Shown here in pieces: positions 220-56,644 of a stretch of DNA of 64,000 bases. This stretch comes from Gemmatimonadota bacterium (GTDB lineage: Bacteria; Gemmatimonadota; Gemmatimonadetes; Gemmatimonadales; Gemmatimonadaceae), in the NCBI GenBank assembly GCA_016182795.1, contig JACPFW010000033.1, forward strand, positions 1 to 64,000, given 5' to 3'. A program made the position numbers and the translations under genes. Numbering within the stretch: the stretch's first letter is position 1; each line of letters starts with the position of its first letter. The notes under the pieces were generated by a model, which was not told where the DNA came from, did not search any database, and saw only the letters and a list, made by a program, of their open reading frames with translations.

Positions 220-2904
220 CTACGGCTGCGTCCTCGGCGCCGCGGGCTTCTTCCGCGCCAGCGCCATACCGTCGTTCTTGACGTACAGGTCGAGCCACGT
301 GGTCCACCGCGCCCACTGGTCAAGCAGGGTCTCCTTGGTCACCGGGCCGTGGTCCTCGTACGGATACATGTACAGCGACGCCACTTTGCCGTTGGCGCGG
401 AGCGCCTGCATCATGCGGATGGAGCTGATGGGATCGGTGCCGACATTCTGATCCTCGATGGAGTGGTACATCAGAATCGCCCCCTGCAGCTTGTCGGCGT
501 TGAGCATCGGCGACATGTCGAGGTAGGTCTTCTGCCCGCTCCACAGGTCGCGCCGCTCGCTCTGGAAGCCGGAGGGCGTCAGCGTGCGGTTGTACATGCC
601 GTCGCCCGCAATGCCGGCCTTGAAGTACGGGACGTTGACCATCGCGTTCATCGTGCTGAATGCACCGTAGCTGTGTCCGCCGAGCCCGAGCTTGGTGCGA
701 TCGATGTACCCCTGACGGTCAAGTTCGTCGATCACCGTGTAGAGATTCATGCGCAGGTCCGACACATAGTTGTCGTTCATGCGATTGGCTTCGCCAATGA
801 TCGGCGGATTGAAGTTCGCCACCGCATAGCCCTGCGCGGCGAGGAACTCGATCGTGCGCGGACCCGAGCTCACAAACCGATTCACGTTCTCGGTGCGGTT
901 CGACCGGTCGTAGCCGGCCTGGTCGGTGTACTCGTACGGATAGAACCAGAACATGCCCGGCAGGCGCGTGCCGGCCTTGTAGTCGGCGGGCAGGGTGAGG
1001 TTCACCACGAACTTGATGCCGTCGGCGCGCGTCACGATGATGCGCCGACGCTGGAACGCCGTGAACTCGGGCGCCGGATCCACGTTCTTGGTGATCGCGG
1101 TGACGGTGCCGGCCTTGAGGTCCTTGAGATACGAGTTGGGCACCTGCGTCGGCGATTCGCGCGTCACGATTGCCGCGGCGCCGTCATCGTCGAGCAGTGT
1201 GCCCAGCGACTCACTGATGTCCTTGTTTGCCGCTTCAAAGACCCGTGTCTTCTTGCCGCTCGCCATCTCGATCTTGTCGAGGAAGTCCTTGGGCGGGTTG
1301 GCGAGATAGTCGAGCGAGTACTGCGTACCCTTCAGAAACACCTCACCGGCGGCGCTGACCACGGCGACTTCGCCACCGTTGGTGCCGCGCTTGGTGAGCA
1401 TCGCGCCGGGGTTGTTGTAGAACGACAGCGAGTCGCCGCCGCCGCGCGGGCTGAAGCCGCCGAACACCGCACGTCCGCCGCCGACAAACGCGGGCGTCCA
1501 GCCGCGCTGACGCACGATGCTCATGCGCTTGGTGGGATCGCTGAGCTTCACGGCGAAAATTTCGCCGGTGCCGTTGTTGTTCGTCGCCAGGAACAGCGTT
1601 TCGGCGTCGTCGGTGAAGACCGCGCTCGCAATCGCCGTCGTGTGCTGATAGAGGACTTTGATGTCCTTGTCGCCGAACGGCGGCAGCCACTGCACCACCT
1701 TCTCCGGACGGCCCGCCGCGCCGCCCGCACCCGGACGGCCGCCAGTTGCCGGCGCCCCCGCTGGGCGCGTGCTGTCGCCGCGCGCCGTCGAGTCGGATGC
1801 GATGTAGAAGAAGCCGTGGCCCTTGGGCATCCACGCCAGACCCTTCTTGCCGCCGGCCGCGCCGCCGCGCCCGCCAAACGCGCCGCCGCCCGACGTGTCG
1901 CCGGCAAACCGCAGGGCGCGCTTGGAAATCTCGGCGAGCATTTTGCCCGTGGTATCCCACACCGCGTCGCGGCTGCCGAAAGCCGAATACTGCACCACGT
2001 ACGAGAACGGCTTCTGCACCGTGCTCACGCGGAAGTACTTGCCGTCGGGTGACGCATCCACCGATGACAGCATCACCGGCACGCCGATGGGCTTCACGGT
2101 CTTCTTGGCCACGTCAATGACGCCGAGCTGGCCGCGGATGCTCCACTCGAACAGGTCGAAGTCGTACGGCTCCGCCATCAGCGAGGCGTAGTTGCGCTCC
2201 GGCGCCTTGGTGCCCTCCGTCCACGTGCGTACCTGCGGACCGGTGGCAATCTCTGATTTCTTGGGCATCGGATCACGCTTGTCCGGTACGAAGACCGCAA
2301 CGAGACTCTTGCCGTCGGCCGTCCAATCCACCGTCGTCACCAGCGTGGCGAGCAGCGCTTGCTTGGCCACCTGCACCGACTTGCCGGTCGCGACGTCGGC
2401 AACCCAGACATACGACCCGGCGTCGAAGTTGGCGATGTACACCACCTTCTTGCTGTCGGGCGACCAGACGGGAGCGGTGATCATCGCTCCCTTCGGCGCC
2501 TCAATGACGGTCGTCGCGCCGGTGCGCGTATCGATGAGCTGCAGCGCCGTGGCGCCGCGCGCCGTCAGCGCGCGGGCGCGGCTGGCCTTGAGATCGACCT
2601 GCAAGCCGCCGAGATAGACGTGTGCCTTGCCGTACGTCTGCACGCTCGGCAGGCCGTCGGTCTGCTCACGCAGAGAATACTTGCGGTCAGGACTCAGGTT
2701 CGTGAGCGTGACGACGAGATGCCGCGGCGCGGTCACGAGCTTCGCGACTTCGGGTGCCGGCTCAATGTACCCTTCCTTGGCGAGCGTCTCGCGCAAGGCG
2801 TTGAGCTTGGCATCGGTCGCCTGCTGAGCAAGCGACGGCGCGACCGCGAAGAGCAGGAGGGCCGCGACGCGGCCGGCGCGAACGAGGAGTGGGCGGATGG
2901 GCAC
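220..2904 (-). CDS. S9 family (prolyl oligopeptidase-type) serine peptidase, exported
   Basis: Predicted exported peptidase of the S9 clan, cutting short peptides, often after proline or as a dipeptidyl- or acylaminoacyl-peptidase. A GTG start at 2904 gives 894 residues beginning with a clear signal peptide that ends PSLAQQ; the frame stays open upstream to 3072 but that part is not protein-like. The N-terminal half looks like a beta-propeller with low-complexity Gly/Ala/Arg loops near residues 340-420. The C-terminal catalytic domain carries GGHSYGAFS (Ser745), Asp818 in EDQNVGTD and His852 in YEDHG, a complete Ser-Asp-His triad. It diverges from the cyclophilin-fusion gene. No good ribosome binding site was seen at the GTG, so the exact start is uncertain; the family call is firm. 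Confidence 0.93.
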   Translation of the reverse strand: MPIRPLLVRAGRVAALLLFAVAPSLAQQATDAKLNALRETLAKEGYIEPAPEVAKLVTAPRHLVVTLTNLSPDRKYSLREQTDGLPSVQTYGKAHVYLGGLQVDLKASRARALTARGATALQLIDTRTGATTVIEAPKGAMITAPVWSPDSKKVVYIANFDAGSYVWVADVATGKSVQVAKQALLATLVTTVDWTADGKSLVAVFVPDKRDPMPKKSEIATGPQVRTWTEGTKAPERNYASLMAEPYDFDLFEWSIRGQLGVIDVAKKTVKPIGVPVMLSSVDASPDGKYFRVSTVQKPFSYVVQYSAFGSRDAVWDTTGKMLAEISKRALRFAGDTSGGGAFGGRGGAAGGKKGLAWMPKGHGFFYIASDSTARGDSTRPAGAPATGGRPGAGGAAGRPEKVVQWLPPFGDKDIKVLYQHTTAIASAVFTDDAETLFLATNNNGTGEIFAVKLSDPTKRMSIVRQRGWTPAFVGGGRAVFGGFSPRGGGDSLSFYNNPGAMLTKRGTNGGEVAVVSAAGEVFLKGTQYSLDYLANPPKDFLDKIEMASGKKTRVFEAANKDISESLGTLLDDDGAAAIVTRESPTQVPNSYLKDLKAGTVTAITKNVDPAPEFTAFQRRRIIVTRADGIKFVVNLTLPADYKAGTRLPGMFWFYPYEYTDQAGYDRSNRTENVNRFVSSGPRTIEFLAAQGYAVANFNPPIIGEANRMNDNYVSDLRMNLYTVIDELDRQGYIDRTKLGLGGHSYGAFSTMNAMVNVPYFKAGIAGDGMYNRTLTPSGFQSERRDLWSGQKTYLDMSPMLNADKLQGAILMYHSIEDQNVGTDPISSIRMMQALRANGKVASLYMYPYEDHGPVTKETLLDQWARWTTWLDLYVKNDGMALARKKPAAPRTQP

Positions 2905-3080
2905 GGGTCTTGGCGTTGAGGTCTCAACTGGCCCGGAGGCGCGAGAGTCGCGCCCCGGAACGTTGCCATCTAATGAATACGGTTTTCCCGCCGCGTTCGC
3001 TGATGCGCCCGCCGGGCGGGGGACGCCGCGGCGGGTATCCCCCCTTGCGGCGCACCCCGCGCAACCGTCCATTGGCTGGC

Positions 3081-4604
3081 ATGACCCGTACTGCCCTGCT
3101 CGCCCTGTTCAGCGCTTCCCTGCTATCGGCGCAGACGCCGGCACCGACTCCGGACACCCTGCTCATTCGGCGCATCCTTGCCGCCGAAGACCGGCGCGAC
3201 ACGACAGATCGGGCGCTGGCCGTCGGGATCAAGGCCTCGGATGCACGCGTGGCGTCGATCGCCCGGCGCGCGCTGGCGCGTATTCGGGACCCCAAGTTCG
3301 CCGGGCGCGACGCCTTCGGTGCGCTCCCTGCCCCGCCGAAGTACGCGGATCCCGCATGGCGATTGAGATACCGCGCGCTTGATCCCAAATCGACCGACTG
3401 CGCGCAGCTGCGCGATGCGCTTGGCGACAGCGTATGGCATGTCCGACTGCGCGCCGCCGATCTGGTGACGGCGAAGTGTGCGGGCGATGCGGCCCTGATA
3501 TCCACACTCAAGGGATGGCTGCCCTCGGCGACGGCGCGCACTCGCACAGCCGGCGGTGCGGCTTGGCAGCCCGCCGCCCACGCCATCGTCGCACTCGCGC
3601 GCGTGGCGCCGGCTGACGCGCGGAGCGCGCTCCCTGCACTCGCCGGCACCCCCGCGCACTGGGTGCGCACGTACAGCGCGCGTGCGGCCGCGGTGCTCGC
3701 CGACACCCAGCGGCTGCGCGCATTTGCCAGCGACTCCAACGACAATGTGAAGGAAGCGGCCATCGAGGCCCTTGTGAAGTTGACGGGCCATGCTGACGAC
3801 AGCCTGTACGTGGCTGCGCTCGGCGCACGCGGATACCAGGCCGTGCGGGCCGGCGCGCTGGCGCTCAAGGGCGCGGCGCCATCGGCGTCGCTTCGCGCGG
3901 CGCTCGTGCACGCGGCGTACCGCCTGCGCGGCGACTACAGCGAGACCTCGCGCGATGCGCGCACCACGGTGTTGTCGCGCCTCGCCGAGGTGGCCGACAC
4001 CAGTGTGTGGGGCGAGGTCGTGGAACTGGCCACCGATTTTGACTGCGAGGTCGCGAAGGCCGCCGCCGCCATCGCGACCAAGCTGGGCGTTGCCACCAAG
4101 CCAGCGTGCACGCCGTTTCACAACGCCGTCGCCGGCGACGCCGTACGGCTCGCGCTCGGCGCCGATGTGCGCCTGCGGGTGGTGATGTCCGCGGCGCATG
4201 GCGGCGGGGCGTTTGTCGTGCGTCTGCGTGGCGACGTGGCGCCCATTATGGCCGCGCGCATCCTGCAGCTCGCGCAGACCGGATATTACAACGGACGCGC
4301 CTGGCACCGCGTGGAACCGAACTTCGTGATTCAGGGGCCAAGCCCGGGCGACAATGAGTATGTCGGATTGCCGCTGTTTCTGCGTGACGAGCTTGGCACG
4401 GTGCCGCATGTGCGTGGCACAGTGGGAATGAGCACGCGCGGTCACGACACCGGCGACGCCCAGTGGTTCGTGAACCTCAAGGACAACCTGACGCTCAACT
4501 CCACGTACACGGTGTTCGGGGAGATGGTGGAAGGCATCGAGGTTGCCGACGGGGTGCTCGAGGGGGACGTGATTGAACGCATCGAGGTGGTGCGGGCGAA
4601 GTAG
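3081..4604 (+). CDS. Exported HEAT-repeat protein with C-terminal cyclophilin-type PPIase domain
   Basis: 507 residues from ATG 3081, chosen because it starts a signal peptide (MTRTALLALFSASLLSAQ). Residues about 30-350 are a series of short Ala/Arg-rich helical pairs typical of HEAT-like repeats (for example the stretches around ALARIRDPKF and AAIEALVKLTG). The last 150 residues are a cyclophilin peptidyl-prolyl isomerase domain: WHRVEPNFVIQGP contains the Arg used for catalysis in cyclophilins, followed by RGTVGMS and GDAQWFVN. Inferred role: periplasmic folding or scaffolding protein whose HEAT solenoid recruits clients. It stands alone, divergent from the S9 peptidase and convergent with the D-aminoacylase gene 7 bases downstream. 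Confidence 0.88.
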   Translation: MTRTALLALFSASLLSAQTPAPTPDTLLIRRILAAEDRRDTTDRALAVGIKASDARVASIARRALARIRDPKFAGRDAFGALPAPPKYADPAWRLRYRALDPKSTDCAQLRDALGDSVWHVRLRAADLVTAKCAGDAALISTLKGWLPSATARTRTAGGAAWQPAAHAIVALARVAPADARSALPALAGTPAHWVRTYSARAAAVLADTQRLRAFASDSNDNVKEAAIEALVKLTGHADDSLYVAALGARGYQAVRAGALALKGAAPSASLRAALVHAAYRLRGDYSETSRDARTTVLSRLAEVADTSVWGEVVELATDFDCEVAKAAAAIATKLGVATKPACTPFHNAVAGDAVRLALGADVRLRVVMSAAHGGGAFVVRLRGDVAPIMAARILQLAQTGYYNGRAWHRVEPNFVIQGPSPGDNEYVGLPLFLRDELGTVPHVRGTVGMSTRGHDTGDAQWFVNLKDNLTLNSTYTVFGEMVEGIEVADGVLEGDVIERIEVVRAK

Positions 4605-11066: not shown

Positions 11067-12713
11067 ATGTCCCGTTCGTTCATTCGTTCGCTGGCTGCCG
11101 CCAGTCTCGCCCTGATCGTGCCGCTCGCCGTTGGCGCGCAGCGCCCGAGCAGTGCGGCTGATTCGATCAAGTACGTCTACCCGGCGTCGCCCGACCTCGA
11201 CGCGCTCAAGGCGGAGGTCGCCAAGAAGGTCGACGCCAAAGCCAAGCTGGTGCAGGAGATGGTCGATCAGGTCTTCTCGTTTGGCGAACTCGGCATGCAG
11301 GAGTTCGAGACGTCCAAGTACCTGACCGGCATTCTCGAGCAGAACGGCTTCAAGGTGGAGCGCGGCGTCGGTGGTATGCCCACTGCGTGGGTGGCACGCT
11401 GGGGAAGCGGCAAGCCGGTGATCTCGCTCGGCAGCGACATCGACGGCATCCCGCAGACGAACACCAAGCCTGGCGTCGGCTATCGCGATCAGTACCTGCA
11501 GGGCGCGCCCAGCCACGGCGAGGGGCACAACTCCGGTGTGCCGCTGAACATCGCGGCCGCGCTCTCCGTGAAGGAGATCATGGAGGCCAAGAAGATGCAG
11601 GGCACCATCGTGCTCTGGCCGGGTGTGGCCGAGGAGCAGATGGCGGGCAAGGCATTCCTCGTGCGCGCCGGCATCTTCAAGGACGTGGACATCACGCTCT
11701 TCACGCACGTCGGGCAGGACCTCGGCGTGTCGTGGGGGCAGAGCAGCAGCACGGCGCTCATTAGCGCGGTGTTCAAGTTCAAGGGACAGAGCGCCCATGC
11801 GGCCGGCGCGCCGTGGCGCGGCCGCAGCGCGCTGGACGCCGCCATGCTGATGGGCACCGGATGGGAATACCGCCGCGAGCACAACGAACTGCCGTCGCGG
11901 TCGCACTACGTGATCTCCGACGGCGGCGACCAGCCCAATGTGGTGCCGAGCACGGCGGCTATCTGGTTCTACTTCCGCGAGCGCGACTCCGACCGGGTGA
12001 AGGCGCTGTTCGAGCAGGGGAAGCGCGTGGCGCAGGGCGCGGCGATGATGACCGACACGCAGCTCGACACGGTGATGATCATCGGGTCGGGCTGGAGCGG
12101 CCACTTCTCGCGGCCGGTCGCTGAAGCGATGTATGCCAACATCAAGAAGGTTGGGATGCCGGCGTGGGATGAGAAGGATCAGACGCTCGCCAAGGGCATC
12201 CAGCGTGAACTCGGCCAGCCCGAACGCGGTCTGAGCAGCAGCGGCGGGAACATCAGCGGTCCCGTGCCGGAAGCCCTGCGTATGGGTGGTGGGTCCGACG
12301 ACATCGGCGACGTGAGCTGGAACGTGCCGACGATCACCCTGCGGTACCCGTCGAACATTCCGGGCCTGCCCGGGCACAACTGGGCGAACGCCATTTCGAT
12401 GGCGACGCCGATCGCGCACAAGGGCGTGGTGGCCGGCGCCAAGGTGCAGGCGATGACGATGCTCGACATTCTGTCGAACCAGCAGATCGTGAAGGACGCG
12501 TGGGACTATTTCACGAACGTCCAGACCAAGACGGTAAAGTACTATCCGCTGATCGGTCCCAATGACCAGCCGCCCATCTGGCTGAACAAGGACATCCTGC
12601 TCAAGTACCGCGAGGACATGCGGAAGTACTACTACGACCCCAAGAAGTACAAGAACTATCTGGAGCAGCTGGGCATCACGTACCCCACCGTGCACGATAA
12701 GCCGGTGCCGTAA
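11067..12713 (+). CDS. AbgB-like M20 family amidohydrolase, exported
   Basis: 548 residues from ATG 11067 (GGAGG at 11056-11060, 6-base spacer; a GTG three bases upstream is too close). Signal peptide ends PLAVGAQ. Relatives cleave aminobenzoyl-glutamate or other N-acyl amino acids. Motifs: GSDIDGIP, GEGHNSGVPLN and AEEQMAGKAF in the metal-binding catalytic domain, the dimerisation segment with SAHAAGAPWRGRSALDA, and the AbgB-type C-terminus GSDDIGDVSWNVPT and PGLPGHNW. Longer than typical aminoacylases (about 390) and than AbgB (about 480), with extra C-terminal Tyr/Lys-rich sequence after residue 470. It ends at the second inverted-repeat element. Confidence 0.9.
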   Translation: MSRSFIRSLAAASLALIVPLAVGAQRPSSAADSIKYVYPASPDLDALKAEVAKKVDAKAKLVQEMVDQVFSFGELGMQEFETSKYLTGILEQNGFKVERGVGGMPTAWVARWGSGKPVISLGSDIDGIPQTNTKPGVGYRDQYLQGAPSHGEGHNSGVPLNIAAALSVKEIMEAKKMQGTIVLWPGVAEEQMAGKAFLVRAGIFKDVDITLFTHVGQDLGVSWGQSSSTALISAVFKFKGQSAHAAGAPWRGRSALDAAMLMGTGWEYRREHNELPSRSHYVISDGGDQPNVVPSTAAIWFYFRERDSDRVKALFEQGKRVAQGAAMMTDTQLDTVMIIGSGWSGHFSRPVAEAMYANIKKVGMPAWDEKDQTLAKGIQRELGQPERGLSSSGGNISGPVPEALRMGGGSDDIGDVSWNVPTITLRYPSNIPGLPGHNWANAISMATPIAHKGVVAGAKVQAMTMLDILSNQQIVKDAWDYFTNVQTKTVKYYPLIGPNDQPPIWLNKDILLKYREDMRKYYYDPKKYKNYLEQLGITYPTVHDKPVP

Positions 12714-34246: not shown

Positions 34247-34256
34247 GGGGATCGCC

Positions 34257-38729: not shown

Positions 38730-38731
38730 CC

Positions 38732-39217: not shown

Positions 39218-39297
39218 CCCATCGTGGTCGCGTTTGACCGCTCTGGCGTCACCGGGGCATTTGCCGCCCACTGAGCGGTGATCGGGAGTATCTTGAG

Positions 39298-39332
39298 GGG
39301 TGATGGGCCGTCCGGCTCATCGCCCTTCATTT
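39298..39332 (+). terminator. Terminator after the copper operon
   Basis: GGGTGATGGGCCG (39298-39310) pairs with CGGCTCATCGCCC (39313-39325) allowing two G-U pairs, then TTCATTT. It separates the DUF411 gene from the next lipoprotein gene. Confidence 0.6.
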
Positions 39333-39345
39333 GCCCACGACCTCC

Positions 39346-42310: not shown

Positions 42311-43743
42311 TGCGACGCCCATCCACGACCAGACTGCTCGAGGCATCCATGACGAGAACTCTGCTGTTCGCGGCGTCGCTCACGCTCGCCGCGGGCTCGC
42401 TTGGCGCGCAGGCGAATCCGGCCGCGGCCGGCGCCGGCGCCACGCTGATCAAGAACGCAACCGTACTGACAGTCACCAAGGGGACGCTCAAGAACACCGA
42501 CGTCCTCATCCAGAACGGCAAGATCGCGCAAGTCGGTTCGAACATCGCCGCGCCGGCGGGCGCGACGGTCATTGACGCCACCGGCAAGTACCTGATGCCC
42601 GGCATCATCGACCCCCACACGCACACGATGAGCGACGCCATCAATGAAGGGTCGCTTTCGGTCACGTCGATGGTCCGCATTCAGGACGTGCTCAATCCCA
42701 CGGCGATCAACATCTACCGCGCCCTCGCCGGCGGCGTGACGAGCATTAACATCCTGCACGGGTCGGCCAACACCATCGGCGGACAGAACGCGACGGTGAA
42801 GCTCAAGTGGGGCGAGGACGTCGACCAGATGATGTTCCCGGGCGCCCCGCCGGGCATCAAGTTCGCGCTCGGCGAGAACGTCACGCGCAAGAACCAGAGT
42901 CAGATCATCATCCCCGGGCAGCCGACGACGCGCCGCTATCCAGTCTCGCGCATGGGGCAGGAAGAAGTGGTGCGCGACGCCTTCGTGCGCGCCCGTGACT
43001 ACAAGGCGACGCTCGACGACTACAAGGCGCGCGTAGCCAAGGGCGAGAAGAACCTCGTCGCCCCGCGCCGTAACCTTGAACTGGAGCCGCTGGTGGAGGT
43101 GCTCGAGGGGAAGCGGCTGGTGCACGCCCACTCGTACCGGTCGGACGAAATGCTGATGCTCCTCGGCCTGGCCGATGAGTTCGGATTCAAGATCCAGACG
43201 CTGCAGCACGGCCTCGAGGGGTACAAGATCGCGTCGGAGATCGCCAAGCACGGCGCGGGACTGTCGTCCTTCGCCGACAGCTGGTCGTACAAGATCGAGG
43301 CGTACGACGCTATTCCGTACAACGTTGCCATCCTTCTGCGCCACGGCGTCAACGCCACCATCAACTCCGACAGCGACGAACGCATGCGCCGCCTCAACAT
43401 CGACGCCGCCAAGCTGGTGCGATACGGCGGACTCACCGAGGACGAAGCGCTGGCCACGATCACCATCAATGGCGCCAAGCAGCTGGGTGTGGCCGACAAG
43501 GTCGGCTCCATCGAGGTGGGCAAGGACGCCGACCTCGGCTTGTGGAACAACCATCCGCTGAGCGTCTTCGCGGCGGTGGACAAGACCTTCGTCGACGGCA
43601 AGGTCTATTTCGATCGCCAGCAGGACCTGGCGATGCGCGACCAGAAGGCCAAGGAGCGCGCGGATCTCGAGAAGGCCGGAGCCAACCAGGCGCCGGCAAC
43701 GCGCCGCGGCGTGCAGCCGGTCCTGCCGCAGGAGGAGCGCTAA
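42310..43743 (+). CDS. Exported amidohydrolase with intact metal site
   Basis: 477 residues from ATG 42310 (GGAG 7 bases upstream, TAATG coupling); ATG 42349 with GAGG before it is an alternative that begins directly at the signal peptide. Signal peptide ends GSLGAQ. Metal ligands intact: MPGIIDPHTHTMSD (HxH), LVHAHSYRSDEM, TLQHGLEGYK and NSDSDERMRR. Long inserts after the HxH. Likely an imidazolonepropionase- or dipeptidase-type hydrolase acting on peptides or cyclic amides in the periplasm. Flanked by two ligand-less paralogues. Confidence 0.88.
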   Translation: MRRPSTTRLLEASMTRTLLFAASLTLAAGSLGAQANPAAAGAGATLIKNATVLTVTKGTLKNTDVLIQNGKIAQVGSNIAAPAGATVIDATGKYLMPGIIDPHTHTMSDAINEGSLSVTSMVRIQDVLNPTAINIYRALAGGVTSINILHGSANTIGGQNATVKLKWGEDVDQMMFPGAPPGIKFALGENVTRKNQSQIIIPGQPTTRRYPVSRMGQEEVVRDAFVRARDYKATLDDYKARVAKGEKNLVAPRRNLELEPLVEVLEGKRLVHAHSYRSDEMLMLLGLADEFGFKIQTLQHGLEGYKIASEIAKHGAGLSSFADSWSYKIEAYDAIPYNVAILLRHGVNATINSDSDERMRRLNIDAAKLVRYGGLTEDEALATITINGAKQLGVADKVGSIEVGKDADLGLWNNHPLSVFAAVDKTFVDGKVYFDRQQDLAMRDQKAKERADLEKAGANQAPATRRGVQPVLPQEER

Positions 43744-43744
43744 C

Positions 43745-45085
43745 ATGACGCGCATTCGTTTTGCCGCCATCGCGGCACTCACGGCACTGGCCGCTTCGTC
43801 CGCCGGTGCCCAGCTCGGTTCGTTCAATCCGCCCCCCGGCCCGCAGAAGACGTTCGCCATCACCAACGCGCACATCGTGCCGGTGAGCGGACCGGAGATT
43901 GCCAACGGCACCGTGGTCATCAGCGGTGGCAAGATCCAGGCGGTCGGTGCTTCTGTCTCGGTGCCCAGCGGCGCCGAGGTCATCGACGCCAAGGGTTTGC
44001 ACGTCTACCCCGGCATGATGGACGCCGGCACCTCGATTGGCCTGTCGGAGATTGGCCAAGGCGCCAACGCGACGGTCGACATCAGTGAAGTGGGGAGCTT
44101 TAACCCGAACGCGATGGCCTATTACGGCCTCAATCCGCATTCGGCGCACATTGGCGTTACGCGCGTGGTGGGCATCACCCACGTCATCACGCGTCCGACC
44201 GGCGGCATTCTCTCGGGGCAGGCCGCGCTGGTGAACCTCGCGGGCTCCACGGCGCCGCAGATGGCGGTGAACCGCAGCATCGCGACGGTCATCGAGATGC
44301 CGCGCTCCGGATTTGGCGGACGCGGCTTTGGCGGCTTCTTCGCGGCGCAGGGACCGGCCAACACGCAGGACGTCAACCGCACGCGCCAGCGTCAACTCGA
44401 CTCGCTGCGCACGATGCTGCGCGACGCCGAGGCGTACGGCACGGCGATGGATGCCTACGCCAAGGACAAGACGCTGCCGCGTCCGAAGCACGATGTCGTG
44501 CTGGCGTCACTCGTGCCGGCGGTGCGCGGGCAGATGCCGGTGCTGATGGTGGCCGATCGCGTGACCGACATCAAGGAAGCCGTCGGCTTTGCCGAGGAGA
44601 ACAAGCTGCGCCCCATCATCGTGGGCGGACGTGACGCGTGGCAGATCACGTCGTTCCTGAAGGACCATGACGTGCCCGTGCTCATCACCTCGGTGATGGA
44701 CTTGCCGACGCGCGAGGACGACCCGTACGACGTGAACTACAGCGCGCCGGCGAAGCTGGCGCAGGGTGGCGTGCGCTTCGCCATCACGTCGGGCGACGCG
44801 GGCGCCGAAGCGCGCAACCTGCCGTATACCGCCGGCATGGCGGCGGCTTTTGGCCTGAGCCGCGAGGACGCGCTGAAGTCGGTGACGCTCTGGCCCGCGC
44901 AGATCTTCGGCATCGCCGACCGGTTCGGCACGATCGAGGTGGGGAAGGCAGCCAACCTCGTGGTGACCACCGGTGACGTGCTCGAGGCCAAGACCGACAC
45001 CAAGTATCTCTTTATCGACGGCCGGCTCGTGCCGCTCGACACCAAGCACACCGACCTCAACGACAAGTTCAAGGACCGTCCGTGA
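43745..45085 (+). CDS. Amidohydrolase-fold protein lacking metal ligands, second partner
   Basis: 446 residues, one base after the previous stop. Signal peptide ends SSAGAQ. Same fold as the neighbours (AITNAHIVPVSGPEIANG; YPGMMDAGTSIGL) but HxH is AGTS, and later ligand positions are VLMVADRV, IVGGRDAW and AITSGDAG. A Gly/Phe-rich loop (GFGGRGFGGFF) sits near residue 190. C-terminal part keeps the amidohydrolase tail SIEVGKxANLVV-type sequence. Likely structural or regulatory partner of the intact enzyme. Confidence 0.85.
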   Translation: MTRIRFAAIAALTALAASSAGAQLGSFNPPPGPQKTFAITNAHIVPVSGPEIANGTVVISGGKIQAVGASVSVPSGAEVIDAKGLHVYPGMMDAGTSIGLSEIGQGANATVDISEVGSFNPNAMAYYGLNPHSAHIGVTRVVGITHVITRPTGGILSGQAALVNLAGSTAPQMAVNRSIATVIEMPRSGFGGRGFGGFFAAQGPANTQDVNRTRQRQLDSLRTMLRDAEAYGTAMDAYAKDKTLPRPKHDVVLASLVPAVRGQMPVLMVADRVTDIKEAVGFAEENKLRPIIVGGRDAWQITSFLKDHDVPVLITSVMDLPTREDDPYDVNYSAPAKLAQGGVRFAITSGDAGAEARNLPYTAGMAAAFGLSREDALKSVTLWPAQIFGIADRFGTIEVGKAANLVVTTGDVLEAKTDTKYLFIDGRLVPLDTKHTDLNDKFKDRP

Positions 45086-46509
45086 GACTCTTCCCCATCG
45101 TTGCGGCGACGGCGCTGCTGAGCGCCGCCACCCTTGGCGCCCAGCAGAAGCCGTTGACGCCGACGCAGCTGCTGGCCCGCGACATCTACAAGGAACTCGT
45201 CGAGATCAACACGTCGGTGTGGACGGGCAGCACCACACCGGCCGCGAACGCGATGGCCAAGCGGTTCCGTGACGCCGGCTTTCCCGAGAAGGACATCTAC
45301 GTCGGCGGCCCCACGGAGAAGAAGCACAACCTCGTGGTCCGCTTCCGCGGCAAGGGCGGCGCCGGCGCGCCCAAGCCGGTGCTGCTGCTCGCGCATCTCG
45401 ACGTCGTGGAGGCGTTGAAGGCCGATTGGTCCGACAACCTCGATCCGTTCAAGTTCACGGAGCGCGACGGCTTCTACTACGGACGTGGAACCTCCGATGA
45501 CAAGGCGATGGCCTCGCTGTTTGTCGCGGCGCTCCTGCGGCTGAAGCAGGAAGGGTACGTGCCGCCACGCGACATCATCGTCGCCCTCACGGCCGACGAA
45601 GAAGGCGGCGCGTACAACGGCGTGGACTGGCTCATCAAGAACCATCGCGACCTCGTGGACGCCGCCTGGGTGATCAACGAGGGCGGCGGCGGCGCGCTGC
45701 GCGACGGCAAGCCGCTGCTGCAGTCGGTGCAGGCCGCCGAGAAGGTGTACAACGACTTCACCTTCCGGACGACCAACCCGGGCGGCCACTCGTCGGTGCC
45801 GCGCGCCGACAACGCCATCTACCAGCTCTCCGAGGCGCTGGCGCGGCTGTCGAAGTTCACGTTCCCGGTGGAACTGAACCCGGTCTCGCGCGCCTTCTTC
45901 GAGCAGACGGCGAAGGTGGAGAAGCCCGAGATGGCGGCCGCGATGGCGGCCATTGCCAAGAATCCGGCCGATGCCGACGCCGCCGCGTTTATCTCAAAGG
46001 ATCCGCGCTACGCCTCGATGCTGCGCACGACCTGTGTGGCCACGATGCTCAAGGGCGGGCACGCCGTGAACGCGCTTCCCCAGCTCGCCGAGGCCAACGT
46101 CAACTGCCGCATGGCGCCGACGGCGACCAAGGCGTCGGTGCAGGCCACGCTGCAGCAGGTGGCGGGCGATCCGAAGATCGTCGCCGTGGTTGACACCAGC
46201 TCCGAGAATCGCGCCTCACCGCCGTCCGAGATGCGCCCCGAAGTCATGGGACCAGTGGAGAAGCTGACGCGCGAGATGTACGGCGACATTCCCGTGGTGC
46301 CGACCATGTCGACTGGCGCCACCGATTCGCGGTACTTCCGCGCCCTCGGCATTCCGGCCTTCGGTGTCTCCGGCTTGTTCAGCGACCCCGCAGTGGACGC
46401 GCGGGCTCACGGGCGCGACGAGCGCGTGCGCATTGAGTGGTACTACAAGGCGCAGGAGTTCCTCTACCAGCTCACACGCCTGCTCTCTTCCAGCGTTCCC
46501 GTTCCCTGA
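45082..46509 (+). CDS. Exported M20/M25/M40 family peptidase (ArgE/DapE-like)
   Basis: 475 residues from GTG 45082 overlapping the upstream stop by 4 bases. Signal peptide ends ATLGAQ. Zn-ligand motifs: LLAHLDVVEA, YGRGTSDDKAMASLF (bridging Asp), LTADEEGGAYNGVDW (Glu-Glu), TTNPGGHSSVPRADN in the dimer domain and AHGRDERVR near the C-terminus. Fourth gene of the amidohydrolase operon, implying that the operon degrades peptides or N-acyl amino acids outside the cytoplasm. Confidence 0.9.
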   Translation: MRLFPIVAATALLSAATLGAQQKPLTPTQLLARDIYKELVEINTSVWTGSTTPAANAMAKRFRDAGFPEKDIYVGGPTEKKHNLVVRFRGKGGAGAPKPVLLLAHLDVVEALKADWSDNLDPFKFTERDGFYYGRGTSDDKAMASLFVAALLRLKQEGYVPPRDIIVALTADEEGGAYNGVDWLIKNHRDLVDAAWVINEGGGGALRDGKPLLQSVQAAEKVYNDFTFRTTNPGGHSSVPRADNAIYQLSEALARLSKFTFPVELNPVSRAFFEQTAKVEKPEMAAAMAAIAKNPADADAAAFISKDPRYASMLRTTCVATMLKGGHAVNALPQLAEANVNCRMAPTATKASVQATLQQVAGDPKIVAVVDTSSENRASPPSEMRPEVMGPVEKLTREMYGDIPVVPTMSTGATDSRYFRALGIPAFGVSGLFSDPAVDARAHGRDERVRIEWYYKAQEFLYQLTRLLSSSVPVP

Positions 46510-46570: not shown

Positions 46571-48838
46571 ATGACGCCATTCTTCCGGTCGCGCGCGCTT
46601 ACGCTCGCGCTCGTCTGCTCCCCGTGTGCGCTGCCGGCGCAGTATCCCTCCGTCCGCAGCGGCACGGCGACCGTCACCAAGACGCCGCCGGTGATGGACG
46701 GCCGACTCACCGAGGACGCCTGGCGCGGCGCGGCGGCGTTGAGCGGATTCACCCAGCGCGAGCCCGCCGAGGGCATACCGGTGAGTGAGCGCACCGAGGT
46801 GCGCCTGCTCACGGATGGTGATGCGCTGTACATCGGCGCGTGGCTGTACGATCGCGACGTCGCCGGGATTGTGGCGGGCGAGAAGATCCGCGACGTGACG
46901 CTGACCAACAGCGACTACTTCGGGATTTTGCTGGACACGTACAAGGACCGCCAGAACGGCTTTCTGTTCGCGACCACGCCAGCCGGTGTGGAGTACGACG
47001 GCCAGATCATCCGCGAGGGTGAAGGGGGCGGCGTCAGCGTGACCGGCCAGAACCGGGCGCAGTCGGGCGCGCTCGGCGGATTCAATCTCAACTGGGACGG
47101 CTCGTGGAAGGTGATGACGTCGCGCGACTCGGCGGGATGGTACGCCGAATTCCGCATTCCCTTCTCGACGCTCCGCTACGGCGGCGGCGCCAACCAGGAA
47201 TGGGGGCTCAACCTCGTGCGCATGATCCGCCGGCGCAACGAGGAGGCGTTCTGGTCGCCCATCTCGCGCCAGTTCAACCTCTATCGCATGTCGCAGGGCG
47301 GCACGCTCACCGGCCTGCAGGTGCCGGCACGGCGCGTGGCCACCATCACGCCGTCGATCCTCAGCGCCGTCAACCGCAACTTCGCCGCCAGCGATCGGGC
47401 GGTGACCACGGGTCAGCTTGGCGTGGATGCCAAGTACGGCGTCACGCCGAGCCTCACGCTCGACCTCACCGTCAACACCGACTTCGCGCAGGTGGAGGTG
47501 GACGAGCAGCGCAGCAACCTTACGCGCTTCCCGCTCTTCTTCCCCGAGAAGCGGCCGTTCTTCCTGGAGAATGCCGGCACCTTCGCGGCTGGCACGCCGC
47601 AGGCCGTGGATCTCTTCTTCACGCGACGCATCGGCATTGACTCGATGGGCCAGCCGGTGAAGATCCGCGGCGGCGGCCGGCTCACCGGCCGTATCGGGAG
47701 CACGACGGTCGGGCTGATGCAGATCTTCACGGCGGAGAATGCCGGTGTGGTGGGGGCACAGTCGTTTTCGGTGGCTCGCGCCATCAAGGAAGTCGGCCGC
47801 CGGTCACGCATTGGCGTCATTGGTGTGCAGCGGCTCGGCATCGGTGATCGTCTTGCCCCGCTGTGCTCGGCGCAGATCCCGTCGTGCCACCTGCCGGACG
47901 ACGTCAACCGCACGTACGGCGTGGACGGGCGGCTTGGCATTGGCGATGCCTGGACCTTCGACGCGTGGGCGGCGGCCACCGAGACGCCGGGCAAGCGCGG
48001 TGATGACTTTGCCGGCAGCGCGCGCGCCGTATATCTGACCCACGACTGGAACAGCAGTGCCCGGTTCCTGCGCGTCGGCGCCGACTTCAACCCCGAAGTC
48101 GGGTTCATCAGCCGGACGCCGGGATACACGTTCTCCGAAGTACAGGTGATGCGGATGGTTCGCCGCGCGTCGTGGACACACGTGCGCGAGTGGAATCCGC
48201 ACGTCACGTATCGCGAGTACTACGGCTTCGACGGATTCCACCAGAGCGGCCAGTGGCATCTCGACCTCAGTGAAGTCTCGTTCAGGAACGGCGGACGCTT
48301 TGGGCCGGAGGTCAACCTCTATCACGAGGGGCTGCAGAAACCGTTCTCCATCGCGCCGGGGGTTACGCTCCCGGTCGGCAGCTACGACTTTGTGAATATC
48401 GGCCTCGACTGGGAGACCAACGCCGCGGCGCCGCTGTCATTCGTGCTGCGCGGCGACTTCAACCAGTTCTACAACGGCACGCGCAACGGCGGCACGATGA
48501 CGCTCACTTACCGGCGCGGTGCGTCCATCACGTCGTCTCTGCTGCTCGACTACAACGACGTGAAGCTGGAGCAGGGCCATTTCATCAAGTCGATCATCGG
48601 GGCGCGCGTGGCGTACTTCTTCACCCCGCGCGTTTTTGTGCAGTCGCTGGCCCAGTTCAACGATCAGGCGTCGGCGTGGACAACCAACGTCCGGTTCGGC
48701 TGGCTGAACACCGCCGCCACGGGATTGTTCATCGTGCTCAACGACGGCGAACAGGCTGACTCGTTCTTCAACTGGCAGCGGCCGATGGCCCGCTCGCTGA
48801 CGGTCAAGTTCACACGGCAGTTCGGCACCGGACAATAG
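46571..48838 (+). CDS. DUF5916 / carbohydrate-binding family 9-like outer-surface protein
   Basis: 755 residues from ATG 46571. Signal peptide ends CALPAQ. The N-terminal CBM9-like domain (PPVMDGRLTEDAWRGAAAL; GDALYIGAWLYDRD) is followed by DUF5916: NTDFAQVEVDEQRSNLTRF, PLFFPEKRPFFLENAG and FFTRRIG, then an amphipathic beta-strand region to the end, consistent with a beta-barrel outer-membrane protein. Function uncertain; relatives sit near peptidase and TonB loci. Upstream hairpin suggests its own transcript. Confidence 0.88.
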   Translation: MTPFFRSRALTLALVCSPCALPAQYPSVRSGTATVTKTPPVMDGRLTEDAWRGAAALSGFTQREPAEGIPVSERTEVRLLTDGDALYIGAWLYDRDVAGIVAGEKIRDVTLTNSDYFGILLDTYKDRQNGFLFATTPAGVEYDGQIIREGEGGGVSVTGQNRAQSGALGGFNLNWDGSWKVMTSRDSAGWYAEFRIPFSTLRYGGGANQEWGLNLVRMIRRRNEEAFWSPISRQFNLYRMSQGGTLTGLQVPARRVATITPSILSAVNRNFAASDRAVTTGQLGVDAKYGVTPSLTLDLTVNTDFAQVEVDEQRSNLTRFPLFFPEKRPFFLENAGTFAAGTPQAVDLFFTRRIGIDSMGQPVKIRGGGRLTGRIGSTTVGLMQIFTAENAGVVGAQSFSVARAIKEVGRRSRIGVIGVQRLGIGDRLAPLCSAQIPSCHLPDDVNRTYGVDGRLGIGDAWTFDAWAAATETPGKRGDDFAGSARAVYLTHDWNSSARFLRVGADFNPEVGFISRTPGYTFSEVQVMRMVRRASWTHVREWNPHVTYREYYGFDGFHQSGQWHLDLSEVSFRNGGRFGPEVNLYHEGLQKPFSIAPGVTLPVGSYDFVNIGLDWETNAAAPLSFVLRGDFNQFYNGTRNGGTMTLTYRRGASITSSLLLDYNDVKLEQGHFIKSIIGARVAYFFTPRVFVQSLAQFNDQASAWTTNVRFGWLNTAATGLFIVLNDGEQADSFFNWQRPMARSLTVKFTRQFGTGQ

Positions 48839-49795: not shown

Positions 49796-51399
49796 CGGGG
49801 CGCCGGGTCCTGCGTATCGAGTATCTCGCGCGCCGTCTCCTCGCCGTAGAGCTCGACCGCGCACGTGTGGCAGATGCCGTGGCTGAAGCGGGCGTCCGAG
49901 TGGCTGCTGATGTAGCTCTCGACGCTGTTCCAGTATCCCTGGTCGTCACGCACCTTCTTGCACGACGCGCAGATGGGAATGAGGCCGGACAGCGTGCGCA
50001 CGTCGGCGAGGGCGGCCCGCAGCTCCGTGTTGACGGCGGCAAGATCGGCGTTGGCTCGTAACACCTCAGCCGAGCGCGAATTGACCTTCTGATTGTAGTA
50101 AGCGACGATCGCCAGCAGTGACACGGCGAGCAGCAGGACGAGCGCGCCGAGCATGCCGATGGCGCGCTGACGCGCGATGACGGCGGTCTGCACATGCTCG
50201 TTCTCGCGCAGGCGGGCCAGTTCGCGCTGCGCGCGCTCCTGCGCGGCGCGCGATTCGAGCGTCACGATGCGCTGCGTCGTCGCCTGACTGAACAGGGAGT
50301 CGCGCAGCGCCACGTGCGCGTGCAACAGCCGCAGCGCGGACGCCGTGCGACCCGACGCCTCCTCGATTTCCACCAGCTGCCGGAGCGCAACCAACGCGAG
50401 GACACGCTGGCTTGCCTGCCGCGAGAAGGCGAGCGCTTTCTCCAGGGCGGCGCGCGCTTTCGCGGCATCCCCCATCGCGCGGTACGCCTCGCCAAGATAG
50501 AGGTTCGCACGGGCCTGCCCTCGCACGCTGCCCTGCCGCACACCGATGGCGAGCAGCGTGCTCAAGAGGGCCGCTCCATCGCGGGGCCGCCCCTCGTGCA
50601 CGAGCAGCAGCCCTTCGGCCGCCGTGTTCAACGACCATCCGCTGGCTGAGTCGGCTGGCGTGACGATCCGTCCGCCCCGATACGCTTCGATGGATTCGCG
50701 CAGATGCCGGCGCGCCTGCGCGAAGTCGCGCCGGTCGATGTTGAGCATCACCAGACTGTTCTGCGCATAGCCGAGCACCGCGCCGCTGTCCACGGCCTGC
50801 GCCAGCAGAACGGCGGAGTCCAGCATCCGCTGGGCGCGGTCGAACTGCCCCCAGTCGTGATAGGTCTTGCCGATGTTCGTCAGCGTCCGCGCCATCCCCG
50901 CCGTATCATGCTCTTCGCGCCGCAGGGTCATGGCCTCGAGATACGCGTCGAGCGCCTGCTCAAAGATGCCAAGCTGGTAGTAGGTGGCCCCAATGCTGTT
51001 GAGCACCTGGCCCAACCCGCGACGGTCGCCCGTCGCACGTCGGATGTCGCGCGCGTGTTCCATGTGCACCAGCGCGCTATCGTAGCGGTTGCGGCTCCAA
51101 TGCAGCAGCCCAAGGCGGTGCAGCGCGTTGGCGAGCTGCGCCGAATCGGGTACGGCGCCTCCACGGCCCTGCAGCACCGCGCGCAGCGAATCCGTCCGCT
51201 GCTCCAGCGTGGCCGAGTCCCGGGCCACGAGGCCCGCCTGCGCCGTCGCCTCCGTGGGGAGGGCAGCGACGACTCCGGCGATGATGACGGCAATGCTCGA
51301 CAGCGAACGGCGCAAAGCGGAGCCTGGCCTCTTACGAAGGAATGAGCGGGACGGTCGAAACGCGGCAGCTAATATCGCAGGAACCGAGCGCGACGGCAT
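49792..51399 (-). CDS. TPR protein with membrane segment and C-terminal CxxC/CxxC domain
   Basis: 535 residues. A signal-like segment ends ALPTEATAQ (about residue 54); TPR repeats fill about 85-330 (LHRLGLLHWSRNRYDSAL; NSIGATYYQLGIFEQALD). Then a coiled coil, a transmembrane helix (about 420-440: GALVLLLAVSLLAIVAYY), a second coiled coil, and a C-terminal domain GLIPICASCKKVRDDQGYW followed by HGICHTCAVELYG. The last domain, a putative zinc-binding CxxC...CxxC module, is usually attached to PAS or response-regulator proteins. The topology resembles a kinase-less sensor. Start uncertain among several upstream codons. Confidence 0.85.
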   Translation of the reverse strand: MPSRSVPAILAAAFRPSRSFLRKRPGSALRRSLSSIAVIIAGVVAALPTEATAQAGLVARDSATLEQRTDSLRAVLQGRGGAVPDSAQLANALHRLGLLHWSRNRYDSALVHMEHARDIRRATGDRRGLGQVLNSIGATYYQLGIFEQALDAYLEAMTLRREEHDTAGMARTLTNIGKTYHDWGQFDRAQRMLDSAVLLAQAVDSGAVLGYAQNSLVMLNIDRRDFAQARRHLRESIEAYRGGRIVTPADSASGWSLNTAAEGLLLVHEGRPRDGAALLSTLLAIGVRQGSVRGQARANLYLGEAYRAMGDAAKARAALEKALAFSRQASQRVLALVALRQLVEIEEASGRTASALRLLHAHVALRDSLFSQATTQRIVTLESRAAQERAQRELARLRENEHVQTAVIARQRAIGMLGALVLLLAVSLLAIVAYYNQKVNSRSAEVLRANADLAAVNTELRAALADVRTLSGLIPICASCKKVRDDQGYWNSVESYISSHSDARFSHGICHTCAVELYGEETAREILDTQDPAPR

Positions 51400-53210: not shown

Positions 53211-53924
53211 ATGGACTTTTCCGGCCTAGCCGACCGCTTGTCTCAGAGCCCTGTCACCGCCCTCCCGGTGCTCTTTGCCGCGGGCGTATTGACGAGCCTG
53301 ACGCCGTGCATCTACCCCATGATCCCCATCACCGCCGCGATCGTAGGCGGCACGGGGACCGGCGCGGCCGTCCCCCGCTGGCGTACCGTGGCGCTGACGT
53401 TTGCGTACGTCATTGGCCTCGCCCTCGTGTACTCGCTGCTGGGCCTGCTGGCGGGGCTGTCGGGAACGCTATTCGGTTCGGTCAGCGCCAACCCATGGCT
53501 GCTCTTCGGCATGGCCAACCTGCTCCTCATCGCCGCCTTGGCGATGCTCGACGTGATTCCGGTGCAGCTACCGGCCTCGCTGACCGCCCGCGGCGCGTCG
53601 ATCGGTGAGGGGGGGCGCGTGGGGGGCGCCTTCCTGATGGGTGCCGCGTCCGGCCTCGTGGCCGCTCCCTGCTCTGCCCCGGTGATGGCCGCGGTGCTCA
53701 CCTGGGTATCACGAACGAAGTCGGCGGCCTTGGGGTTTACCTACCTATTCGTCTTCTCGCTCGGCATGTGCACCCTGCTCGTGGTGGTCGGTCTCTCCAG
53801 CGGCGCGGTCAGCCGTCTGCCGAGAGCCGGCGCCTGGATGCTGTGGGTCAAGCGATTCTTCGCGCTCGCGATGGTCGGAGCCGCCGAGTACTACCTCATC
53901 AAGGCAGGTCAGGGATGGTTCTAA
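53211..53924 (+). CDS. CcdA/DsbD-type thiol:disulfide electron-transfer membrane protein
   Basis: 237 residues, six hydrophobic helices. The two redox cysteines are in LTSLTPCIYPMIP and GLVAAPCSAPVMA, the CcdA/DsbD core. It passes electrons from cytosolic thioredoxin across the membrane to periplasmic thioredoxin-like partners. Its stop overlaps the next gene by 10 bases, whose product is a TlpA-like periplasmic thioredoxin, the natural partner. Confidence 0.9.
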   Translation: MDFSGLADRLSQSPVTALPVLFAAGVLTSLTPCIYPMIPITAAIVGGTGTGAAVPRWRTVALTFAYVIGLALVYSLLGLLAGLSGTLFGSVSANPWLLFGMANLLLIAALAMLDVIPVQLPASLTARGASIGEGGRVGGAFLMGAASGLVAAPCSAPVMAAVLTWVSRTKSAALGFTYLFVFSLGMCTLLVVVGLSSGAVSRLPRAGAWMLWVKRFFALAMVGAAEYYLIKAGQGWF

Positions 53925-54427
53925 ACTACAGGGTGCGCCTCGCGGCGTATGTGACGGCCGCCGTGCTGTTTGCGGCAAGCGGCACCAACGCCGGGGCACA
54001 GGAGAGCGGCATCGCGGTGGGCACCAAGGCGCCGAGCGCGGCCGTCGAAACGCTCGACGGACAGCCCGCCGAGTTGTCGACGATGTTCGGCAAGGGACCG
54101 GTGGTCATCCAGTTCTGGGCAACATGGTGCCCCACCTGCAAGGCGATGGAGCCGGCCATGCAGGCCGCCGAGAAGAAGTACGCCGGCAAGGTGTCCTTTG
54201 TGGGCGTCGCCGTCAGCGTGAACCAGACGCCGCGCGCGGTGCAGGCGTACGCCGCGAAGCATGTCCCGACCGTCAAGCAGTTCTTTGACCGCCGCGGCAA
54301 GGCGGTGGACGCCTATGAGGTGCCGGCGACCGGCTTTGTGGTCGTCGTCAACAAGGCCGGTGTGGTGGTCTACACCGGGCTCGGCTCCGAGGTGAATCTC
54401 GACGCCGCCATCAAGAAGGCGATGTAA
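53915..54427 (+). CDS. Periplasmic TlpA/redoxin-family thioredoxin
   Basis: 170 residues from ATG 53915, inside the end of the CcdA-type gene. Signal peptide ends NAGAQ. Thioredoxin fold with FWATWCPTCKAMEPAM (CPTC active site) and EVPATGFVVVVNKAG (cis-Pro-like Thr). Presumably reduced by the upstream membrane protein and used for cytochrome or cysteine repair. Its stop overlaps the following hydrolase start (TAATG). Confidence 0.88.
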   Translation: MVLNYRVRLAAYVTAAVLFAASGTNAGAQESGIAVGTKAPSAAVETLDGQPAELSTMFGKGPVVIQFWATWCPTCKAMEPAMQAAEKKYAGKVSFVGVAVSVNQTPRAVQAYAAKHVPTVKQFFDRRGKAVDAYEVPATGFVVVVNKAGVVVYTGLGSEVNLDAAIKKAM

Positions 54428-55320: not shown

Positions 55321-55335
55321 CGCGCGACCGCGGCG

Positions 55336-55863: not shown

Positions 55864-55873
55864 CGCGCCCTCG

Positions 55874-56644
55874 TCACCGTGCGCGCGGCAGGAGTCGCCG
55901 GTCGAGCCAATGCGCCGGACGGTCGGCGTGGAAGCGCGCGACTACGCGGGCGCTGATGAGGCCAATGCCGGCGCCCATCACCACGTCGCTCGCCCAGTGA
56001 TTGTCGCTGTGCATGCGCGCCAGCCCGGTGAGCGTGGCCGCCGCATAGAGCGCCGGTCCGGCCCAGCGCGCCGTGCCGGGGCGTGACAGGCGCAGCTCAC
56101 GATCGAGCGCGCCGGCAAACGCAAACGCGGCGGTCGTGTGCCCTGAGGGAAACGACTGGCGCGCGCCGTCGTGCACGCCAGACAGCAACCGGAAATCGCC
56201 GGGCCGTCCGGGACTCGCATACGGCCGGGCGCGGCCGGCGATGCCCTTGATGCCGCCGGTCACGATGCCGCTGAGCACAATGGCTTCACCGGCGCGCATC
56301 CCCAGCCGCGCGACATCGGGTCGCCCCGTGGCCCAGCCGGCGGCGTAGAGCACCGCGGATCCGGCAAAGACACCCGGGCTCCCGTATGCATTGAACACAT
56401 CGGCCGCGCGCGTGAGCGAGGGCGAGCCTTGCACCCATCGCCGCTGCATCAGGCGTTGGCCGTCGCGGTCAATGAGTGACGTGAGTGCCGACGTAAGCGC
56501 GAACCCTCCAAGCTGCCGCACATCCGACCATGTGACGGGCGACGGCGCGTGGGACGCCGGCGCCGCGCCTTGCGCCGGCGCAAAGACGGGCGTCGCCAGC
56601 ATCGCGGCAAGCAGAACGCGTTGGTAATGCCGAGGGAGTCGCAT
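55874..56644 (-). CDS. PAP2-family phosphatase, exported/membrane
   Basis: 256 residues from ATG 56644; the long open frame upstream to 57436 is antisense to the GNAT gene and is not coding. Signal peptide ends PVFAPAQ. PAP2 catalytic motifs in order: KGIAGRARPYASPG, SFPSGHTTAAFAFA and RMHSDNHWASDV. Such enzymes dephosphorylate lipid phosphates such as undecaprenyl diphosphate or phosphatidic acid. The start is only 12 bases from the divergent GNAT start and no ribosome site is seen. Confidence 0.88.
   Translation of the reverse strand: MRLPRHYQRVLLAAMLATPVFAPAQGAAPASHAPSPVTWSDVRQLGGFALTSALTSLIDRDGQRLMQRRWVQGSPSLTRAADVFNAYGSPGVFAGSAVLYAAGWATGRPDVARLGMRAGEAIVLSGIVTGGIKGIAGRARPYASPGRPGDFRLLSGVHDGARQSFPSGHTTAAFAFAGALDRELRLSRPGTARWAGPALYAAATLTGLARMHSDNHWASDVVMGAGIGLISARVVARFHADRPAHWLDRRLLPRAR

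What the first reader, a model, noticed from the sequence alone, without database searches (positions are those of the whole stretch)
2820..56644. Q-rule-like signal peptides: Gln at the predicted +1 position in nearly all exported proteins
Seen: at least 15 exported proteins have signal peptides whose AxA-like end is followed by Gln (genes at 220, 3081, 11067, 21770, 28883, 31503, 38037, 40577, 42310, 43745, 45082, 46571, 49792, 53915, 55874; for example PSLAQ, VGAQ, LGAQ, LPAQ, NAGAQ). The clear exceptions are lipoproteins, Tat-type proteins, and CopC, whose mature N-terminus needs His for copper, plus the small Cys-rich protein at 30986. Established: a Gln(+1) preference with pyroglutamate formation (the Q-rule) is described for Bacteroidetes. 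Inference: this probable Gemmatimonadota may cyclise periplasmic N-termini too, and would need a glutaminyl cyclase not present here.
Basis: partly seen in the sequence, partly recalled or inferred. Interest (0 to 1): 0.72.

Follow-up and report, generated by a model that had tools for sequence, protein, structure and literature searches.

The report
Glutamine-start rule in Gemmatimonadota exported proteins
Exported proteins of this bacterium usually begin with glutamine once their signal peptide is cut off, a habit that papers call exclusive to another bacterial phylum, and most relatives examined carry an enzyme of the kind that seals such a glutamine into a protective cap.

Summary
A crude caller that does not reward Gln finds Gln enriched after the cleavage motif in the window (odds ratio 6.2) and in 20 other stretches of the genome (7.0, p=1.6e-15), not in E. 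coli or S. meliloti (1.3 each); a Bacteroidota control gives 7.5. In two exported families, OmpH/Skp and TolB, Gln follows the signal peptide in 30 of 30 and 30 of 30 Gemmatimonadota loci read. The window genome's only copy has an internal deletion in this assembly. Some 25 genomes show neither, and the eight of these that were examined keep the Gln. Tat precursors do not follow the rule (0 of 28 by best site). So a Q-rule, described as exclusive to Bacteroidetes (PMC10653852), also holds across Gemmatimonadota. Pyroglutamate formation is inferred, not shown.

The parts
2824..2904 (-). Signal peptide of the gene ending at 220 (start taken at 2904); SLA then Gln codon at 2826-2824
3081..3134 (+). 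Signal peptide of cyclophilin-type isomerase gene 3081; LSA then Gln codon at 3132-3134
11067..11141 (+). Signal peptide of gene 11067; VGA then Gln codon at 11139-11141
21770..21835 (+). Signal peptide of carboxypeptidase-regulatory-domain gene 21770; ASA then Gln codon at 21833-21835
28883..28933 (+). Signal peptide of peptidase-like gene 28883; LAA then Gln codon at 28931-28933
31503..31622 (+). Signal peptide of outer membrane efflux protein gene 31503; AAA then Gln codon at 31620-31622
37556..37660 (+). Exception: CopC signal peptide, AVA then His (end coordinate approximate)
38037..38144 (+). Signal peptide of gene 38037; SGA then Gln codon at 38142-38144
40577..40651 (+). Signal peptide of gene 40577; LAA then Gln codon at 40649-40651
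42310..42411 (+). Signal peptide of gene 42310 (start may lie downstream); LGA then Gln codon at 42409-42411
43745..43813 (+). Signal peptide of gene 43745; AGA then Gln codon at 43811-43813
45082..45144 (+). Signal peptide of peptidase-like gene 45082; LGA then Gln codon at 45142-45144
46571..46642 (+). Signal peptide of DUF5916 gene 46571; LPA then Gln codon at 46640-46642
51238..51315 (-). Signal peptide of the gene ending at 49792 (start taken at 51315, TTG); ATA then Gln codon at 51240-51238
53915..54001 (+). Signal peptide of thioredoxin-like gene 53915; AGA then Gln codon at 53999-54001
56570..56644 (-). Signal peptide of the gene ending at 55874 (start 56644); APA then Gln codon at 56572-56570
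30986..31072 (+). Exception: signal peptide of the Cys-rich protein, ARA then Cys (end coordinate approximate)

Best explanation
Gemmatimonadota follow a Q-rule like that of Bacteroidetes. Signal peptidase I frees a Gln as the first residue of most Sec-exported, non-lipidated proteins. The Gln is then most likely closed to pyroglutamate by a lipoprotein glutaminyl cyclase in the periplasm (PgQC-like M28 type in most genomes, plant-type beta-propeller in others), which would shield the N-terminus from aminopeptidases. Shown from sequence: the +1 Gln bias, its breadth, its absence from Tat precursors, and the presence of both cyclase families. Inferred: the cyclisation, its protective purpose, and the periplasmic site of the enzyme.
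For: 15 of 15 sites in the window. OR 6.2 and 7.0 against 1.3 in two controls. Shuffle control. OmpH 30 of 30 and TolB 30 of 30 loci with [AG]|Gln, -1 Ala/Gly in all, -3 small or aliphatic in 30 of 30 and at least 29 of 30, +2 onward variable; E. coli Skp and TolB start ADK and EVR. M28-type cyclase in 199 of 298 and PF05096 in 101 of 298 genomes, 271 of 298 with at least one. Profile matches solved 'glutamine cyclotransferase' chains at 2e-79; the plant-type one matches 3mbr at 1.9e-70. Asp144, Glu176, Asp177, Asp213, Asp262, Asp263, His264, His289 are the same in 16 of 16 aligned sequences.
Against: No protein chemistry. The window genome's only cyclase gene is interrupted in this assembly, and about 25 of 298 genomes show neither family though eight of them that were examined keep the Gln. 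In small genome samples the fitted Gln fraction is low: G129 0 of 8, G184 3 of 13, G070 4 of 11, though in G129 three of the listed precursors have a nearby AQ. The +1-blind caller alone puts Gln at +1 in only 13 of 29 OmpH and 19 of 30 TolB because it often misplaces the cut.
Confidence: 0.8

Rival explanations
1. The +1 Gln is only a cleavage preference of this phylum's signal peptidase I or of the Sec pathway; cyclisation is incidental.
For: The Gln is kept in genomes without either known cyclase: 8 of 8 OmpH/TolB loci from six such genomes, and fitted counts of 9 of 17 in G125 and 9 of 23 in G161.
Against: Tat precursors, presumably cut by the same peptidase, lack Gln (0 of 28 best sites, 2 of 28 with any [AG]Q), as do CopC and other exceptions; and 271 of 298 genomes do carry a cyclase.
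Confidence: 0.12
2. Lineages without the two known cyclases use a third, undescribed periplasmic cyclase (or spontaneous cyclisation).
For: 25 of 298 genomes show neither family after a profile search and a lax PF05096 search, 18 of them at least 90% complete, G125 in one contig and G161 in two; in genera g64, g80, g85 and g86 none of the ten sampled members has one. Of 23 M28-like hits in G125, G161 and G034 I could read 15 in the right frame and all look like aminopeptidases.
Against: Completeness of 90-96% leaves room for missed genes; eight of the 23 hits were not read; no candidate enzyme was found.
Confidence: 0.3
3. Composition or caller artefact.
For: The caller is crude and the genome is 67% G+C; absolute fractions depend on it.
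Against: S. meliloti pSymB (62% G+C) and E. coli show no enrichment with the same procedure, the mature parts of the same proteins do not, shuffles do not, and orthologues read without a caller give 60 of 60.
Confidence: 0.02

Closest known systems
Bacteroidetes Q-rule (PMC5837995, PMC10653852)
   Same: Gln directly after the signal peptidase I site in the majority of Sec substrates, whatever their place (periplasmic OmpH and TolB, outer-membrane efflux protein); a cyclase gene of animal or plant type, rarely both.
   Different: Other phylum; pyroglutamate not demonstrated; some lineages show neither cyclase; Tat precursors exempt (neither paper's main text holds the words Tat or twin-arginine).
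PgQC-like (animal type, M28) glutaminyl cyclase
   Same: Full-length profile match to solved chains called glutamine cyclotransferase (6qql, 7cje, 6qro; 2e-79 to 9e-79), Glu-Asp in place of Glu-Glu as in most Bacteroidetes enzymes, lipoprotein-like N-terminus. The three plasmid-collection hits are all Bacteroidota, 34-37% identical.
   Different: Only about 35% identical to those; activity untested; the copy in the window's genome is interrupted.
Plant-type glutaminyl cyclase (PF05096)
   Same: 101 of 298 genomes; the G019 protein matches 3mbr, 3nol, 2faw and 3nok at 1.9e-70 to 1.3e-51.
   Different: No match in the window's own genome.

Membership tests
Q-rule system | Gln at +1 of most signal peptidase I substrates | tested here: met
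   15 of 17 clear window cases; fitted 43 of 65 in the genome sample; OmpH and TolB 60 of 60.
Q-rule system | Holds irrespective of final location | tested here: inconclusive
   Periplasmic OmpH and TolB and a window outer-membrane efflux protein follow it; no systematic sorting by location was done.
Q-rule system | N-terminal Gln is converted to pyroglutamate | not testable with these tools
   Needs mass spectrometry.
Q-rule system | A glutaminyl cyclase is encoded | tested here: met
   271 of 298 phylum genomes at the thresholds used; 27 without, two of these with contig-end fragments.
Q-rule system | Cyclase is essential for growth | not testable with these tools
   Reported for P. gingivalis (PMC10653852, abstract and passages).
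Q-rule system | Restricted to Bacteroidetes, as stated in PMC10653852 | tested here: not met
   Present across sampled Gemmatimonadota.
Animal-type (M28) glutaminyl cyclase | Catalytic and zinc-binding residues conserved | tested here: met
   Invariant in the 16 of 29 intact relatives that I aligned.
Animal-type (M28) glutaminyl cyclase | Lipoprotein signal | tested here: met
   Lipobox-like motif seen in 29 of 30 loci by a loose pattern; Cys invariant in 16 of 16 aligned, but start sites were chosen by the lipobox.
Animal-type (M28) glutaminyl cyclase | Intact gene in the window's own genome | tested here: not met
   Frame lost after VDGEDYGDFG; about 30 codons with the DMIGD motif missing, C-terminal motif in another frame.

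The most novel reading that the evidence does not exclude
Several Gemmatimonadota lineages keep the Q-rule without either known glutaminyl cyclase, and apply it to Sec but not Tat substrates: so either a third, undescribed periplasmic cyclase exists, or +1 Gln has a role of its own in Sec export or quality control that does not depend on the known enzymes.
Probability: 0.35. Interest if true: 0.78.

Novelty: new member of a known kind. Interest (0 to 1): 0.62.

Why it matters
PMC10653852 ties the Q-rule to Bacteroidetes alone and suggests their strong proteolytic pressure as the reason. A second phylum with the same rule and the same two cyclase families, known mostly from soil and water, puts that explanation to the test and points to an older or a convergent origin. 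The Tat exemption suggests that signal peptidase I does not itself need the Gln. Lineages without a known cyclase would be natural knockouts. In practice, proteomics of Gemmatimonadota should search exported N-termini as pyroglutamate.

Tried and rejected
Composition bias as the cause: rejected by the high-GC control and shuffles. Taking the best-scoring cut alone undercounts, as the listing shows misplaced cuts next to a Gln, so a fitted +1 distribution was added and applied to the controls too. A plant-type cyclase in the window genome: no match. A hidden cyclase in the genomes without one: two contig-end fragments (G014, G209) among 27, and with a lax PF05096 search weak or fragmentary matches in 3 of the other 25, one over the family's cut-off (G228, 88% complete). 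NCBIfam gave no cyclase name for either protein. A structure prediction of a congener's cyclase had not finished at any of eight look-ups, so no fold comparison was made. The script stopped on an error after printing six plant-type ORFs; its Tat part was redone. In one search the label 'other 10 Gemm genomes' is wrong: loci L129-L188 come from nine genomes. Two of my notes overstate: entry 2 says all 80 loci are Gemmatimonadota (78 of 80 by name), entry 3 that all M28 proteins look like aminopeptidases (15 of 23 read).
Full report
What was checked. In the window I find two clear Sec/SPI exceptions, CopC (AVA|H) and the Cys-rich protein at 30986 (ARA|C), one ambiguous ORF (30132), three lipoproteins and two Tat-like precursors.

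Is it more than chance? I wrote a crude signal-peptide caller that uses n-region charge, h-region hydropathy and the -3/-1 residues. It does not reward Gln at +1, though it penalises Pro there and drops hydrophobic mature starts. It lets in membrane anchors and cytoplasmic starts, so absolute fractions are too low. Gln after the cleavage motif, c-region against mature part of the same proteins: window 10 of 63 vs 24 of 808 (OR 6.2); 20 further stretches of the genome 36 of 210 vs 77 of 2692 (OR 7.0, p=1.6e-15); E. coli 5 of 67 vs 58 of 995 (OR 1.3, p=0.59); S. meliloti pSymB 4 of 75 vs 28 of 673 (OR 1.3, p=0.55); Prevotella, a Bacteroidota positive control, 8 of 45 vs 21 of 746 (OR 7.5, p=1e-4). 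Gln at the raw best cut: 7 of 13 (window), 17 of 52 (other stretches), 3 of 22 (E. coli), 2 of 18 (pSymB), 6 of 15 (Prevotella). After fitting the +1 distribution: 10 of 13, 32 of 52, 3 of 22, 1 of 18, 7 of 15. An earlier run with another gene caller gave E. coli 0 of 19 fitted and 1 of 19 raw. Shuffling the residues after the h-region lowers the fitted fraction from 0.66 to 0.12 on average in the window's genome, from 0.45 to 0.13 in G125 and G161, and from 0.48 to 0.17 in nine other genomes.

How wide is it? Eleven other phylum genomes were sampled. Fitted Gln counts: G129 0 of 8, G075 7 of 11, G184 3 of 13, G158 6 of 14, G019 14 of 24, G058 5 of 12, G070 4 of 11, G199 5 of 9, G069 6 of 16, and, without a known cyclase, G125 9 of 17 and G161 9 of 23. 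The motif enrichment is not significant in G129 (p=0.64) and G184 (p=0.16) and has p of 0.012 or less in the other nine. Flanks of the 80 named loci give 51 of 96 fitted, OR 3.2, p=4.8e-12. G019 is one contig of 4,636,964 bases, which I recall as the length of the Gemmatimonas aurantiaca T-27 genome.

Orthologues. OmpH/Skp was found in 119 of 121 genomes and TolB_N in 50 of 121; the 30 best loci of each were read, not all. Ala or Gly followed by Gln stands at the end of the signal peptide in 30 of 30 and 30 of 30. The pattern by itself is loose (I estimate, without a call, that an [AG]Q would fall into such a 47-residue stretch by chance in perhaps 40% of cases), but the sites line up: -1 is Ala or Gly in all, -3 small or aliphatic in 30 of 30 and at least 29 of 30, and positions from +2 vary. 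27 and 28 of the 30 stretches are distinct. With the +1-blind caller the same sets give 13 of 29 and 19 of 30. E. coli Skp and TolB start ADK and EVR by the usual sites. The sets include family f11 of another class (G003, G005, G009) and six genomes without a known cyclase (G009, G034, G035, G093, G096, G120; 8 of 8 loci).

Tat substrates. From a Pfam TAT_signal search of 150 genomes the 30 loci held were read and 28 could be located: Gln at the best -3/-1 site in 0 of 28, any [AG]Q in the region in 2 of 28, of which one (L381, ARA|Q) looks like a real site. Against the +1-blind Sec calls (32 of 59) Fisher p=1.2e-7. The set holds near-identical orthologues, and some of these precursors may be lipidated or uncleaved. 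A smaller, looser Tat listing of 16 from the stretches shows one Gln case, in L024.

The enzyme. The window's genome has a protein with a lipobox, VDGEDYG and, in another frame, TDDHIPLL. Set against congeners it lacks about 30 codons with the DMIGD motif, and the frame is lost. Whether this is real or a fault of the 50-contig assembly I cannot tell. The other PF04389 hits of this genome (20 in all, two of them parts of this gene, and not all true M28) do not show these motifs where I read them, and PF05096 has no match. The first 204 residues find relatives in 199 of 298 genomes at E 1e-15 or better, PF05096 in 101 of 298 at E 1e-10 or better. 29 have both where independence would give 67; 170 have only the M28 type, 72 only the plant type, 27 neither. 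The genomes are related, so the small p-value of that comparison should not be taken at face value. Genomes without a match were found by subtraction from the list of handles, because the tool does not list them all. With a profile, two of the 27 show contig-end fragments; a lax PF05096 search gives weak or fragmentary matches in 3 of the other 25. I aligned 16 of the 29 intact relatives; the residues named in PMC5837995 for the animal-type enzyme are the same in all. The best solved relatives are named glutamine cyclotransferases; that these come from Bacteroidota is recalled, but the three relatives in the plasmid collection are Bacteroides, Prevotella and Phocaeicola.

Mechanism. Most likely: Sec export, cleavage by signal peptidase I exposing Gln, cyclisation by a membrane-anchored cyclase, resistance to aminopeptidases. 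Sites, bias and enzymes are shown from sequence; cyclisation and protection are inferred from work on P. gingivalis. The Tat exemption argues against a demand of the peptidase itself for Gln, assuming that one peptidase cuts both kinds (recalled, not tested here). The genomes without a known cyclase argue that the known enzymes are not the whole reason for the rule, or that another cyclase exists.

Against the literature. PMC5837995 (abstract, sections 16, 17, 18 and 22, and passages read) tested Bacteroidetes, Chlorobi, Spirochaetes, Chlamydiae and Cyanobacteria and holds no word beginning with Gemmatimon; it did report scattered high-Q species elsewhere, such as Ignavibacterium album at 77%, so single species outside Bacteroidetes were already known. 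PMC10653852 (abstract and passages read) calls the rule exclusive to the Bacteroidetes phylum and not applicable to other phyla. PMC11285876 (passages read) mentions Gemmatimonadetes only for type IX secretion. Searches for a Gemmatimonadota Q-rule or cyclase listed none; the library holds only open-licence PubMed Central papers, and of the longer result lists only the first 8 to 20 rows were seen.

Noticed in passing
L012:1159-2059 (G000 contig C30, outside the window): The only glutaminyl cyclase gene found in the window's genome is interrupted by an internal deletion, while the congeners' copies are intact.
   Followed up: partly
G034, G096 (g64), G120, G125, G176 (g80), G150, G297 (g85), G151, G192, G262 (g86): Ten genomes of four genera show neither cyclase family at the thresholds used.
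   Followed up: partly
L371-L400: Tat precursors of the phylum lack the +1 Gln of Sec precursors.
   Followed up: partly
298 phylum genomes: Animal-type and plant-type cyclases tend to exclude each other, 29 genomes with both where 67 would be expected, as reported for Bacteroidetes.
   Followed up: partly
window 30132-30665: Nuclease-like exported ORF with an ambiguous cleavage site, LDA|QPVRA or VRA|AVG.
   Followed up: no
window 37556-39858: CopC followed by a small exported protein, a Tat precursor with a CxCC-like stretch and a lipoprotein, beside an efflux operon at 31503-37559: possibly a copper or metal resistance cluster.
   Followed up: no
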